Assembly: GCA_021777215.1 (NCBI GenBank)
Contig: JAJYDS010000005.1
Coordinates: 1-59,114 of the forward strand
DNA length: 59,114 nucleotides
Reading direction: 5' to 3'
DNA from: a bacterium
GTDB taxonomy: Bacteria; Babelota; Babeliae; Babelales; Vermiphilaceae
A program made the position numbers and the translations under genes. A model generated the notes under the pieces. The model saw only the letters and a program-made list of their open reading frames with translations. It ran no database searches and was not told the origin of the DNA. Shown here in pieces: positions 864-9,580 of this stretch. The first letter of the stretch is position 1; every line of letters begins with the position of its first letter.

Positions 864-1621
864 TACTCCTTTTAATTGTTTTCATCCCCCTATTTCTCTG
901 CTGGGGTTCATTTTTGAGCAATGTTGGTTACCGCATCGTACGCAATCAGTCTTTTTTCTTTAATCGTTCTCGCTGCCCTTCCTGTCGCACAACCCTTGTA
1001 TGGTATGATTTAGTGCCTCTTGTTTCTTGGATTTTGCTACGCGGACGCTGTCGTTCCTGCCAGAAACCTATTTCGTGGCTCTACCCTTTTATTGAATTTC
1101 TGACAACAGCACTCTTTATCCTCTTGATCCTCTTTCAGCCAATAGACTATTTCGCCGCCTATTTTATTTTTTTCTCGGCACTCATTGTCAGTGTAAGATC
1201 AGATCTAGAAACCATGCTCATCTCTCGCTATGTCACTCTATTTCTAGTCCCGGCAGGATTTTTATTTAGTGGATTGGGATTGCTGCCCATCAGCCTCACC
1301 CAAAGCATATTGGGGGCATTGGTCGGCTATGCCCTCCTCTGGGGAACAGCTCAATTCTTTTTTCTTTTAACCCGCAAAGAAGGCATTGGTCAGGGAGACG
1401 TAGAATTATTGGCACTCATTGGATCATTTACTGGCATAGCTGGCGCATGGCTTTCGCTGCTCATTGGTTCCTTAGCCGGGTCACTTATTGGCCTGAGTTA
1501 TATAGCTGTCGCAAAAGTAGGCAGAAATGCCAAAATACCGTTTGGGCCTTTTTTGGCTCTTGGTGCCTTTGGCTACGTTTTTTTTCGCGAACCACTTTTC
1601 AAGCTGCTTACGGGAATCTAG
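863..1621 (+). CDS. pilD: Prepilin peptidase / N-methyltransferase (PilD/GspO type)
   Basis: Membrane aspartyl peptidase that removes the leader of type IV prepilins and pseudopilins and usually methylates the new N-terminus. Visible are the zinc-type cysteines CPSC and CRSC (the CxxC...CxxC motif), the segment RSDLETMLISRY with a catalytic-type Asp, and GQGDVELLALIGSF with the second Asp of the GxGD motif. About seven hydrophobic segments follow one another. The family N-terminus, a hydrophobic helix ending GSFL-N--YR, is encoded in frame from about 863 with no ATG/GTG/TTG until the TTG at 914, which would cut the helix. GGAG at 851-854 is ideally placed for an AUA start at 860 or 863. If AUA is not used, the annotated start is 914. 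A pilin gene lies just downstream on the other strand. Confidence 0.88.
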   Translation: MLLLIVFIPLFLCWGSFLSNVGYRIVRNQSFFFNRSRCPSCRTTLVWYDLVPLVSWILLRGRCRSCQKPISWLYPFIEFLTTALFILLILFQPIDYFAAYFIFFSALIVSVRSDLETMLISRYVTLFLVPAGFLFSGLGLLPISLTQSILGALVGYALLWGTAQFFFLLTRKEGIGQGDVELLALIGSFTGIAGAWLSLLIGSLAGSLIGLSYIAVAKVGRNAKIPFGPFLALGAFGYVFFREPLFKLLTGI

Positions 1622-1633
1622 CCTTATCCGCTT

Positions 1634-2113
1634 CTAATCTGTCAGATCATCCTGAACTACCGTAATCGTATTATTCTGATCAATGGTTAGAATGTCTGGC
1701 TTGCCATCGCCATCAATATCTCCAGCAGCAACGGCAACAAAACCATCTTTATCGGCCTTGGAGATACCCAAATTGCTTGCGGGTGTCTCAAGCTTTCCTG
1801 TCACATACCCACGACCTTCACCCCCACCCGAGAAGCCATACGTATAATAAAACTTTTCGTTTTTGCCACCGCCAGAATACCCTTCGGGTTTCCAGCCAAT
1901 ACCTCCTTGGCCAAGCAGCACGCTAGAATACGTGCCATGTTCTGCCCAATAGGATTTTTCAGCAGCATAAATCGAGTTCAATTGCATATATGCTTCAGCC
2001 CGCTTTGCTTTGGCTAAAAAACGCATAAAACTCGGCACTGACACCATAGCCAGAAAACCAATGATAGCAATAACAATCATTAATTCGATTAAGGTAAATC
2101 CCTGCCTCTTCAT
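1634..2113 (-). CDS. Type IV pilin / type II pseudopilin
   Basis: A 159-residue pilin-like subunit. The short leader MKRQG is followed by FTLIELMIVIAIIGFLAMV, the canonical class III signal with the G/F cleavage site and Glu5, then an amphipathic helix and a globular domain rich in Gly. The C-terminus carries DIDGDGKPDILTID, a calcium-loop-like DxDxDG motif seen in GspG-like pseudopilins and some PilA. I chose the ATG at 2113 (preceded by GGGG) because it gives a normal 5-residue leader; the frame extends 26 codons upstream without support. It is convergent with pilD, whose product should process it. No other pilus genes occur in the window. Confidence 0.88.
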   Translation of the reverse strand: MKRQGFTLIELMIVIAIIGFLAMVSVPSFMRFLAKAKRAEAYMQLNSIYAAEKSYWAEHGTYSSVLLGQGGIGWKPEGYSGGGKNEKFYYTYGFSGGGEGRGYVTGKLETPASNLGISKADKDGFVAVAAGDIDGDGKPDILTIDQNNTITVVQDDLTD

Positions 2114-2287
2114 CTTCCCCTTTCCCTTCTTTAGTTCTAGTGTACGCCGCACAGGGGTTCTCTCGTCAACATAATGCTTAAAAAATCTCATTAATAACCA
2201 ATAAAAAAACTGATGGACGATGGGTATAAATAACTATACACTGATAGAAATTCTTTTATTAATAGCATTGCAAACAAAGGATCTTTT

Positions 2288-5355: not shown

Positions 5356-5640
5356 ATGTCTCTTCTTATATTTATTCTTTCCGGTCTTATCGGCATGAGT
5401 GCTGGCCTGTTCTATGGCCTTTTGTTTATTACACAAAAAAGAAGATTATTCTTCACGAATAACACTCAACGACCAATCTGGCATCATCGTCTCACCTCTA
5501 TTCTCTTGAGCGTACTTCGCGTGGCTCTTTTGGCTGCCGGTTGGTATTACATATTGCGCTCGCCGACAATACCTTTTATACTGATCCTCGTAAGCTTTTT
5601 AGCTGGATTTTGGTTGATAATCACAAAAATGAAAGTGTAA
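5356..5640 (+). CDS. Small membrane protein upstream of atpB (AtpI/AtpR-like by position)
   Basis: A 94-residue protein with three predicted membrane segments: residues about 2-26 (LLIFILSGLIGMSAGLFYGL), 47-64 and 70-88. Two short basic loops separate them. It ends 6 bp before atpB and is probably co-transcribed. In many ATP synthase operons this place is held by atpI or, in N-type ATPases, atpR, which are also short polytopic proteins aiding c-ring assembly. Sequence alone does not let me decide between them, so the function is inferred from position. Confidence 0.6.
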   Translation: MSLLIFILSGLIGMSAGLFYGLLFITQKRRLFFTNNTQRPIWHHRLTSILLSVLRVALLAAGWYYILRSPTIPFILILVSFLAGFWLIITKMKV

Positions 5641-5646
5641 AACCTC

Positions 5647-6396
5647 ATGGCAGGTGAAAACACTGGGCTATTGGCTACTCACCATTGGCGCCCATTCACG
5701 TCTTTCGGATTTGAACATTCTTTTTTTGACCTCAATGCTGACACCCTTATTTATACCTGGCTAACACTCATTATACTTGCCATCGGTATTATTGCCATGC
5801 AGCGCGCCCTCAAAAAAGGATCCGGTTTTCTCTATTTTCTGGTTACTTCAGTAACATCTTTTACTATGGACTTTGTCAGTCAGGCACTTGGCACTTTTTC
5901 GCTCACCCATTATTGTTTTATTGGTACGCTCTTTACGTTTATTCTCTTGTGTAACACGCTTTCATTATTACCGTTAGCTGAAGAACCGACCAATGACCTT
6001 AATACAACACTTGCGCTGGGTATTATCTCTTTTTTCTATATTCAAACAAATGCAATTCGCGCTCATGGCATCAAAAACTATAGTAAAGAATTTTTCTCTC
6101 CCATATTCATCATGTTTCCTTTGCATGTTGTCGGTAAATTAGCAACAATTGTCTCTATTTCTTTCCGTCTTTTTGGAAATATTTTTGGAAGCGCAATAAT
6201 CACTAAAATTTGGCTACAGGCACTTGGCACCTCTGCCCTGTATGAACTCTTGGGTATTGCATTGGGCGCCAATCTGGCCATTATGCTTTTTTTTGGTCTA
6301 TTTGAAGGTTTTTTACAAGCATTTGTCTTTAGCATGCTTACCGTTACCAATCTCGCTATCGCCATCAACAAAGAAGAAGAAGTCCTAGAAGTCTAA
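5647..6396 (+). CDS. atpB: ATP synthase F0 subunit a
   Basis: The ion-channel half of the F0 motor. The 249-residue protein has about six hydrophobic segments. The key helix contains ISFRLFGNIFGSAI, matching the family SLRLFGN motif with the essential stator arginine. The last helix has EGFLQAFVFSMLTV, corresponding to the conserved E--QA-iF--L. It lies 6 bp after the small membrane gene and 13 bp before the c-subunit gene. The other F0F1 genes (b, delta, alpha, gamma, beta, epsilon) are not in the window, so the operon is split. Confidence 0.95.
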   Translation: MAGENTGLLATHHWRPFTSFGFEHSFFDLNADTLIYTWLTLIILAIGIIAMQRALKKGSGFLYFLVTSVTSFTMDFVSQALGTFSLTHYCFIGTLFTFILLCNTLSLLPLAEEPTNDLNTTLALGIISFFYIQTNAIRAHGIKNYSKEFFSPIFIMFPLHVVGKLATIVSISFRLFGNIFGSAIITKIWLQALGTSALYELLGIALGANLAIMLFFGLFEGFLQAFVFSMLTVTNLAIAINKEEEVLEV

Positions 6397-6409: not shown

Positions 6410-7360
6410 ATGGCACCCCTTGCAGCACTATTTCACTATGGAACCGTCGCCCTCACTGTAGCAATTACCGCCATCGGCGTCGGCCTTGGAGAGGGACTGG
6501 CAAGTATCGCCATATTTCGCGCTATTAATATTCAGCCACAAGCACAAGCTGATATTATGCGTACAGCGGTGCTGGGCATGGCTCTTATTGAAACAGCAGC
6601 CATCATGGGCATAACAATGGCTCTTGTAGTACTCTTGGGTTCTCCAGAAGGAGCAGTAAGTCTAAATACCAGTGTTGCCGAGTTGGGCATAGTCTTTGCT
6701 ATCTGTCTTTCTGGTTTCGTGCTTGGTGTCGTATCAGCATTACCAGTTCAACAGGCATGTCTTTCGATTGCTCGTCAGCCTTTTTTTGGACAAAAAATAA
6801 CTCGCTTTATGCTTATCGCCCAATCAATGATTCAAACTCCCATTATTTTTGGTTTCATTGTTGCTATGTACATAAAAGATAATGCTCTGGGAGTCACCAG
6901 TATGTACGAAAGTATTAGATTATTGGCGTGCGGCCTGAGTGTTGGATTGGGAAGTATAGGGCCGGCAATAGGACTTGCCCATTTCGCAAAAACGGCCTGC
7001 CGTAGCGTGGGAATCAACCGCGATGCCTACAATAAATTACTCACCTTCACACTGGTAAGCGAAGCTATTATCGAAACACCGATTATTTTTAGCATGGTAA
7101 TTGCATTACTCCTTATGAACATGGAAAGCACCTCGTTGGTCGTAAGTATATCAATGCTCTCTGCCGCTCTCAGCATCGGTCTTGGCACACTAGGTGCGGG
7201 TATTAGCTCAGGAAGAACTGCTGCTCAAGCAGCCTATCAAATTGCGCTCAATCCAGCACAATCAGGATTGTTATCACGCGTAAGCATGTTTGCTCAGGGA
7301 CTTATGGACACTATAGCAATTTATGCCTTGCTTGTTTCCATCACCCTTCTTTTTCGCTAG
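6410..7360 (+). CDS. atpE: ATP synthase F0 subunit c, four fused hairpins
   Basis: A 316-residue proteolipid, about four times the usual 75-80 residues. Four tandem hairpins align with one another at about 80-residue spacing, each a glycine-rich helix, a short polar loop (such as IARQP, residues 120-124) and a second helix. The ion-binding position is Glu61 (ALIETA), Gln142 (SMIQTP), Glu222 (AIIETP) and Asp300 (GLMDTI). Hairpin 2 therefore lacks the carboxylate. The residue after it is Thr each time, as in Na+-type ligand sets, but the helix-1 Gln of Na+ rings is Glu28, Ser109, Leu189 and Ser267. Such fusions occur in V-type and some archaeal rotors, where they lower the ion/ATP ratio. GAGG lies 8 nt before the ATG. 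Confidence 0.92.
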   Translation: MAPLAALFHYGTVALTVAITAIGVGLGEGLASIAIFRAINIQPQAQADIMRTAVLGMALIETAAIMGITMALVVLLGSPEGAVSLNTSVAELGIVFAICLSGFVLGVVSALPVQQACLSIARQPFFGQKITRFMLIAQSMIQTPIIFGFIVAMYIKDNALGVTSMYESIRLLACGLSVGLGSIGPAIGLAHFAKTACRSVGINRDAYNKLLTFTLVSEAIIETPIIFSMVIALLLMNMESTSLVVSISMLSAALSIGLGTLGAGISSGRTAAQAAYQIALNPAQSGLLSRVSMFAQGLMDTIAIYALLVSITLLFR

Positions 7361-8818: not shown

Positions 8819-9580
8819 ATGAAAAACGGCCGTTTTTCAAAGCGCACATGCCTAGCCACCACGCTGCTGCTCATCATCTGCATCGGACAAGTATCCGCCA
8901 TGCATCATACCGAGAGTACACTGCCATTACTGCCATCCCATCAGAACCGCTCACAATCAGTATAATCACGCAGAACACAATCGAAGAGAATACCCAAAGT
9001 TCCGGCACCCTCATCGAAGAAAAAGAGAGTGCACGTGCGCTGGCAACAGACATGACTATTGCGTGCCTCTATCTAGCAAGCAGTATTCCACAGACAGGAC
9101 CGGCGGCCAGCACTGCAACAGATATTGCCGCCAGTGCTCTCTGGCTGGGAGATGGTTTAAATGAATTGCGCGACAAGAACAAAAAAATCTGCCTCTCTAA
9201 CAAATACTACTATTGCTGGCCTTTTTCTTTTTGGCGGCATCCCAACAATCCCTGAAAAAACGCGCACAGAAGCAACTATCAGCGCAAGCCTACTCTGGCT
9301 TGGTGACAGCATCTGCAAACTCTGGCGAGCCCCAAAGAAAATATGTGAGACACTTACCGATGTAACAATCGCCAGTCTGTTTCTCGCGGGCAGCATGCCC
9401 TGCATACCCAAAGAACAACAAAGCGAAGCAAATATCGCCGCGTGCGTCCCCTGGCTAGCAGACAATAGCATAGATTTAGTTAAGCTCTGCATTAACCGCA
9501 AAAATCAACAACAGACTCTTCATACAATGAAAAGTATTTCAAATTCTTCGCTTAAAAATATCACAATAGAAACAGAGTGA
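8819..9580 (+). pseudogene. Frameshifted secreted protein with three ~50-residue repeats
   Basis: Three overlapping frames make one protein if two compensating shifts are allowed. Frame 2 gives MKNGRF...LLLIICIGQVSA, a clear signal peptide, then ends at 8965. Frame 1 (to 9255) gives repeat 1, TDMTIACLYLASSIPQTG ... ALWLGDGLNEL. Frame 2 again (to 9580) gives repeat 2, TNTTIAGLFLFGGIPTIP ... LLWLGDS, and repeat 3, TDVTIASLFLAGSMPCIP ... VPWLADN. The repeats match one another across the frame change, so this is not chance. The second shift falls near the CTCTCT run at about 9193-9198, the first between about 8900 and 8965. It could be a decayed gene, an assembly error or less likely programmed frameshifting. 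Function unknown. Confidence 0.65.

What the first reader, a model, noticed from the sequence alone, without database searches (positions are those of the whole stretch)
6410..7360. Four-hairpin fused F0 c subunit with one hairpin lacking its ion-binding carboxylate
Seen: four c-type hairpins in one 316-residue chain, with Glu61, Gln142, Glu222 and Asp300 at the equivalent ion-binding positions. Known: fused c subunits in eukaryotic V-ATPases and some archaea lose carboxylates and so lower the number of ions per ATP, favouring ATP-driven pumping. Inference: with three active sites in four hairpins and mixed helix-1 ligands (Glu28, Ser109, Leu189, Ser267), this rotor may act mainly as an ATP-driven pump, which would suit an organism that takes ATP from a host. 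A bacterial F-type a subunit directly upstream makes the combination unusual.
Basis: partly seen in the sequence, partly recalled or inferred. Interest (0 to 1): 0.85.

Follow-up and report, generated by a model that had tools for sequence, protein, structure and literature searches.

The report
Four-hairpin rotor subunit of Dependentiae ATPase
A whole phylum of intracellular bacteria (Dependentiae) carries one rotary ATPase with genes for two kinds of rotor-ring protein, an ordinary small one and a four-fold fused one that in most lineages has lost one of its four ion-binding sites, which suggests a mixed, asymmetric ring in a motor that most likely burns host ATP to pump ions.

Summary
ORF 6410-7360 encodes 316 aa with four F0-c hairpins (Pfam PF00137, E 2.8e-29) and E61, Q142, E222 and D300 at the ion sites. 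It is neither an assembly artefact nor unique: about 96 of 101 Dependentiae genomes carry it, right after the a subunit wherever checked.

The genome also has an ordinary single-hairpin c subunit (Na+ motif Q/E/T/Y) in front of b', b, delta and alpha on another contig, but only one a subunit and one gamma. 48 of 51 genomes have exactly five c hairpins (4+1); 71 of 72 have a single a gene. So one F1F0 enzyme has two kinds of c subunit. The best reading is a mixed ring, like the F/V-hybrid rotor of Acetobacterium woodii, whose c1 is the best match by sequence and fold.

The hairpin-2 carboxylate was lost about once, early in one of two deep clades (63 of 64 genomes), and kept in the other (18 of 19). 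Because both clades share the ATP-importing lifestyle, the loss alone does not explain pump function. Pump direction rests on other evidence: nucleotide translocases, no respiratory oxidase or complex I, and an epsilon without its inhibitory C-terminal domain. New variant of a known kind; ring composition and ion are untested.

The parts
5356..5640 (+). Small 94-aa membrane protein directly before atpB; AtpI-like candidate (c-ring assembly factor family), weakly supported
   Evidence: Conserved in this position in most of the relatives examined with enough upstream sequence. PF03899 ATP-synt_I is the family hit by most members (8 of 21 at E<=1, best 0.0018), but the window copy itself has no hit.
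5647..6396 (+). F-type a subunit (AtpB), 249 aa; the only one in the genome
   Evidence: PF00119 E 3.5e-36; the sole PF00119 match in the genome. Residues equal to E. coli R210, N214 and Q252 invariant in 32 of 32 Dependentiae sequences.
6410..7360 (+). Four-hairpin fused c subunit, 316 aa
   Evidence: Four PF00137 stretches; AF2 pLDDT 96; best PDB match A. woodii c1, 4bem_J, by sequence and fold.
6446..6628 (+). Hairpin 1; carboxylate Glu61 (codon 6590-6592), second acid Glu28 in helix 1
   Evidence: E28/E61/T62 resembles the two-carboxylate site of F. nucleatum (PMC3692424).
6683..6874 (+). Hairpin 2; Gln142 (codon 6833-6835) in place of the carboxylate; keeps a canonical ARQP loop
   Evidence: No carboxylate in 63 of 64 clade-B genomes, carboxylate in 18 of 19 clade-A genomes; RQP 122-124 nearly invariant.
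6923..7114 (+). Hairpin 3; Glu222 (codon 7073-7075)
   Evidence: E in 78 of 83 genomes; helix-1 ligand is Q in 19 of 19 clade-A genomes, mostly L in clade B.
7157..7345 (+). Hairpin 4; Asp300 (codon 7307-7309), Tyr305
   Evidence: D or E in 82 of 83 genomes, Tyr305 in 78 of 83.

Best explanation
ORF 6410-7360 is a rotor subunit of the single F1F0-ATPase of a Dependentiae (Babeliales) bacterium. The same enzyme also uses the single-hairpin c subunit encoded with b', b, delta and alpha elsewhere in the genome. The c-ring is most likely a mixed ring of fused four-hairpin and single-hairpin subunits around the one a subunit. In the window's lineage hairpin 2 of the fused subunit passes the a subunit without carrying an ion, so each fused subunit carries three ions over four hairpins. 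The enzyme most likely runs as an ATPase, spending ATP imported by nucleotide translocases to pump ions and energise the membrane. The site ligands (Q/E, E, S/T, Y in the single c; E28/E61/T62 in hairpin 1) suggest Na+, but hairpins 3 and 4 lack the helix-1 glutamine, so the ion is open. Shown: gene content, conservation, residues, predicted fold. Inferred: mixed ring, direction, ion.
For: One a and one gamma gene in nearly every genome (a: 71 of 72; gamma: 66 of 72), with five PF00137 hairpins (4+1) in 48 of 51: the two c types have no second stator to divide between them. The a and fused-c genes often overlap by 4 nt. The single c precedes F1/stalk genes in all 46 loci found. Glu is kept in 46 of 46 single c and all 83 fused proteins keep acids at two or more sites. 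The best PDB match is A. woodii c1, a chain of entry 4BEM, which holds nine c2 chains and one c1 chain. Direction: TLC in 58 of 61, no COX1, no complex I, epsilon of about 80-100 aa without C-terminal domain, and a published inference of reverse operation in C. destructans (PMC6561590).
Against: No protein-level evidence exists for the mixed ring; two separate rings sharing one a, or a minor role for either c, are not excluded. One Glu-to-Gln change in an engineered fused c10 ring of Bacillus PS3 abolished ATP synthesis (PMC8809890), so an inactive hairpin may not be tolerated in every F0. The fused and single c genes lie in different operons. Stoichiometry is unknown. Three of 51 genomes show only four PF00137 matches, although G023 and G050 are under 85% complete.
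Confidence: 0.6

Rival explanations
1. Homomeric fused ring: the ring is built of fused subunits only (for example three chains, 12 hairpins, 9 ions, 3 ions per ATP in clade B). The single c is an unused or conditionally used paralogue.
For: The fused c is the one cotranscribed, and often overlapping, with the only a gene. M. kandleri has all its ring hairpins in one fused chain (PMC2359735).
Against: The single c is as widespread, keeps its Glu in 46 of 46 and nearly the full Na+ motif, and always sits in front of the stalk/F1 genes. An unused gene would not be kept like this in about 1-Mb genomes.
Confidence: 0.15
2. Two alternative rings: the same a subunit and F1 assemble with either a single-c ring or a fused-c ring in different life stages, changing the ion-to-ATP ratio.
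For: Separate operons for the two c genes would allow separate regulation.
Against: No expression data. The a subunit would have to fit two ring diameters, and no such switch is documented in the papers consulted.
Confidence: 0.12
3. The fused c with a forms a separate, F1-less ion channel, while the single c forms the ATPase ring.
For: The fused c lies apart from the F1 genes.
Against: No other a subunit exists for the ATPase. The a subunit keeps the rotary-motor arginine in 32 of 32, and hairpin 2 keeps the RQP loop, the part of c that meets the central stalk (role from general knowledge).
Confidence: 0.05
4. Synthase reading: the enzyme mainly makes ATP from an ion gradient, and the lost site only tunes the ratio, as proposed for A. 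woodii.
For: A. woodii and C. aceticum use their hybrid rings for synthesis (PMC7911925).
Against: No oxidase or complex I to build a gradient, nucleotide translocases present, epsilon without its inhibitory domain. Other primary pumps (Rnf, NQR, decarboxylases) were not searched.
Confidence: 0.15

Closest known systems
F/V-hybrid rotor of Acetobacterium woodii (c1 with c2/c3; PDB 4BEM) and the c1/c2 pair of Clostridium aceticum
   Same: F-type enzyme with one a subunit and two kinds of c, one single-hairpin with a Na+ motif and one fused; the fused one has Gln in place of the carboxylate in one hairpin (PMC7911925); best sequence and fold match.
   Different: Four hairpins instead of two; fused and single c in separate operons; the active fused hairpins mostly lack the full Na+ motif; phylum-wide in host-dependent bacteria that import ATP; half the phylum keeps all four acids.
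V-type c/K subunits (E. hirae NtpK, eukaryotic V-ATPase c)
   Same: Fused hairpins with loss of a carboxylate; fold match (2bl2, TM 0.82 by target length).
   Different: F-type a, alpha, beta, gamma, delta and epsilon genes; NCBIfam scores favour F0 c models; four hairpins.
Multi-hairpin archaeal K subunits (M. jannaschii 3, M. kandleri 13 hairpins)
   Same: More than two hairpins fused in one chain (PMC2359735).
   Different: Archaeal A/V-type; M. kandleri keeps all Na+ ligands in every hairpin; no single-hairpin partner is described there.
N-ATPase (alternate F1F0)
   Same: A small membrane protein precedes a and c; the TIGR03322 c model matches at 99 bits.
   Different: TIGR03322 and TIGR03306 are below their cut-offs; delta is a separate gene and F1 genes are not in the N-ATPase order (order in PMC11738941).

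Membership tests
ATP synthase subunit c (PF00137) | Two-helix hairpins matching the family above its curated cut-off | tested here: met
   101.6 bits against a cut-off of 24, four stretches.
ATP synthase subunit c (PF00137) | Acidic ion site in helix 2 | tested here: met
   Three of four hairpins (E61, E222, D300); hairpin 2 has Q142.
F/V-hybrid rotor (A. woodii type) | F-type enzyme with one a and two kinds of c, one fused and one single | tested here: met
F/V-hybrid rotor (A. woodii type) | Fused c of two hairpins, one without carboxylate | tested here: not met
   Four hairpins; one without carboxylate in clade B, none in most of clade A. Works-like claim kept, strict membership not claimed.
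F/V-hybrid rotor (A. woodii type) | Both c types in one physical ring | not testable with these tools
   Needs the purified enzyme.
F/V-hybrid rotor (A. woodii type) | Na+ coupling motif (Q, E, S/T) in the active hairpins | tested here: inconclusive
   Met in the window's single c (QETY) and in 42 of 46 paired genomes; hairpin 1 has E28/E61/T62; hairpins 3 and 4 lack the helix-1 Q in the window.
N-ATPase | N-type c and a models above their curated cut-offs | tested here: not met
   99.3 against 130.85 bits and 92.4 against 302.1 bits.
V-type ATPase | V/A-type catalytic, central-stalk and a (I) subunits | tested here: not met
   PF00119 a, PF00231 gamma, PF00213 delta and PF02823 epsilon of F-type are present. 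V-type subunits were not searched for as such.

The most novel reading that the evidence does not exclude
An entire bacterial phylum runs its only F-ATPase on an obligately asymmetric ring: a fused four-hairpin block with a fixed, position-specific pattern of active and silent sites, joined with single-hairpin subunits. This would be a second and independent evolution of V-ATPase-like ring asymmetry, tuned for ATP-driven pumping in energy parasites.
Probability: 0.45. Interest if true: 0.75.

Novelty: new variant of a known kind. Interest (0 to 1): 0.6.

Why it matters
Mixed rotor rings in F-type enzymes are documented in a few acetogens only, as far as the papers consulted show. Here the gene content predicts one in a whole phylum, with two sister clades that differ in exactly one ion site. 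That is a natural experiment on how a lost site changes the ion-to-ATP ratio, and on whether such losses really go with ATP-driven pumping: here they do not track lifestyle.

Tried and rejected
Assembly artefact: rejected, the fusion is in about 96 of 101 genomes and in a complete genome. Chance ORF or pseudogene: rejected. Second complete ATPase elsewhere: rejected for the a, alpha/beta and gamma genes. N-ATPase: below cut-offs. Origin of the four hairpins from a doubled two-hairpin unit: suggested by the alternating helix-1 Gln in clade A, but the hairpin tree has 66 columns and does not decide it; H1+H3, H2+H4 and H2+H3 groupings are all compatible. S/T covariation between single and fused c: seen only as a clade difference, not used. 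The first genome-contig scan with one sequence found nothing; the alignment scan found 32 loci from Dependentiae records or unnamed bacterium MAGs, but its single pattern is too specific to exclude other fused c subunits elsewhere. The plasmid search gave one irrelevant c match. Matthies 2014 is not held in the library. Ring modelling with a was not possible with single-chain prediction.

Full report
The observation. ORF 6410-7360 (+) encodes 316 residues with four PF00137 stretches (E 2.8e-29). AlphaFold2 on an alignment of 31 Dependentiae sequences gives eight long helices (mean pLDDT 96.0, pTM 0.92). The a subunit (5647-6396, PF00119 E 3.5e-36) ends 13 nt before it, and a 94-aa small membrane protein precedes a.

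What organism and how widespread. A scan of GTDB genomes with the alignment returned 32 loci, all from records named Candidatus Dependentiae, Babeliales or TM6, or unnamed bacterium MAGs, including the complete genome AP025250.1. Of 101 genomes of the window's phylum, 96 match over most or all of the protein; the others show only the short single c or nothing, and those are mostly incomplete assemblies. In the 33 loci examined in detail the fused c follows a directly, with a 4-nt overlap in many.

A second c gene, but only one stator. The genome has a separate single-hairpin c at G000:C23:71557-71748. Its residues Q30, E63, T64 and Y68 are the complete Na+ motif. It is followed by b' and b candidates (by position; no Pfam hit), delta (PF00213) and alpha; some or all of these genes follow it in all 46 loci found. 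Beta and epsilon lie on C42, gamma on C2. Yet PF00119 finds exactly one a subunit in 71 of 72 genomes, beside the fused c (the exception, G071, has an additional partial match), and gamma is single in 66 of 72 (five incomplete or divergent genomes show none, one has an extra fragment). PF00137 finds five hairpins in 48 of 51 genomes. So the normal picture is one F1F0 enzyme, one a, two kinds of c.

Mixed ring. The simplest reading is a ring that contains both. The precedent is A. woodii, whose c1 is the best PDB match by sequence (E 1e-12 for the protein, 4e-22 for the alignment) and by fold (Foldseek E 3.4e-5). PDB entry 4BEM holds nine c2 chains and one c1 chain. In C. aceticum and A. woodii the second hairpin of c1 reads Q....QT instead of Q....ET (PMC7911925), the same Glu-to-Gln change as in hairpin 2 here. 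That both c types sit in one ring in Dependentiae is inference.

History of the lost site. In 83 aligned proteins the pattern at the four sites is EQED 37, EEEE 16, EQEE 13, EMED 7, DQED 3, and ten others. A tree built without these columns has two well-supported sides (98): 19 genomes of which 18 keep the hairpin-2 acid, and 64 of which 63 lack it. Three changes suffice. With the loss came other changes: hairpin 3 has the helix-1 Gln in 19 of 19 clade-A genomes but Leu in 52 of 64 clade-B ones; hairpin 4 gains Ser267 and mostly Asp300. Each hairpin position forms its own group across the phylum, so the fusion predates the phylum's radiation and the four positions have specialised.

Ion. The single c has Q/E + E + S/T in 42 of 46 paired genomes. 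Hairpin 1 in the window has E28, E61 and T62, like the two-carboxylate Na+ site of F. nucleatum (PMC3692424) but without its Tyr. Hairpins 3 and 4 lack the helix-1 Gln. Na+ is favoured, not shown.

Direction. ATP/ADP translocase family genes (PF03219) occur in 58 of 61 genomes, three in the window's genome. Heme-copper oxidase is absent apart from one 69-residue fragment at a contig edge. Complex I NuoH is absent; the single match carries four in-frame TGA codons and looks like host mitochondrial DNA. Epsilon is present in 31 of 36 genomes, always as a short frame of 79-102 aa; in the window's genome it is 81 aa and ends after the N-terminal domain, so the C-terminal domain that restrains ATP hydrolysis in many bacteria (PMC5990651) is missing. 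The authors of the C. destructans genome inferred reverse operation (PMC6561590). Together this supports ATP-driven pumping. The missing carboxylate adds little: clade-A genomes with all four sites have the same translocases and lack of respiration, and some later clade-B lineages lost a further site (EQGE).

Caveat on mechanism. In an engineered fused c10 ring of Bacillus PS3 one Glu-to-Gln hairpin abolished ATP synthesis (PMC8809890). The Dependentiae a subunit must therefore let a silent hairpin pass, as that of A. woodii does. Its arginine, asparagine and glutamine equal to E. coli R210, N214 and Q252 are invariant (32 of 32), while E219 and H245 are replaced.

Stoichiometry. For x fused and y single chains, clade B has 4x+y hairpins and 3x+y ions per turn, that is (3x+y)/3 ions per ATP. 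Nothing here fixes x or y.

Novelty. Multi-hairpin c/K subunits and a hybrid F/V rotor are known; ProAD treats multi-hairpin c/K subunits as a class (PMC11738941). In the papers searched I found no description of the Dependentiae case; subscription papers and supplements were not available. I file it as a new variant of a known kind.

Noticed in passing
G000:C42:48535-48771 (minus), next to beta; relatives: ATP synthase epsilon is reduced to its N-terminal domain (81 aa in the window's genome, frames of 79-102 aa in relatives), apparently across the phylum.
   Followed up: partly
L070:6822-8444 (G000:C42), minus: A HerA/DUF87 helicase-like gene with a HAS-barrel lies directly downstream of beta-epsilon.
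   Followed up: no
G011:C29:253-1158 and G035:C10:3-206: A NADH dehydrogenase subunit 1 match with four in-frame TGA codons, and a COX1 fragment at a contig edge: probably host mitochondrial contamination in Dependentiae MAGs.
   Followed up: no
window 914-1621 (+) and 1634-2191 (-): A type IV prepilin peptidase and, facing it, a prepilin-like protein with an N-methylation motif and a weak FG-GAP match.
   Followed up: no
window 8848-9580: Two neighbouring ORFs (8848-9255, 9161-9580) hold degenerate repeats of a motif like 'TxATIAxLFLxGxIP...TEATIxASLLWLGD'; no family was searched.
   Followed up: no
L029 (G014), hairpin 2 of the fused c: The only clade-B genome with Glu at hairpin 2: a reversion or an independent retention.
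   Followed up: no
L119 (G046), fused c: The ion-site pattern is DESG: two of four acids lost, at hairpins 3 and 4 instead of hairpin 2.
   Followed up: no
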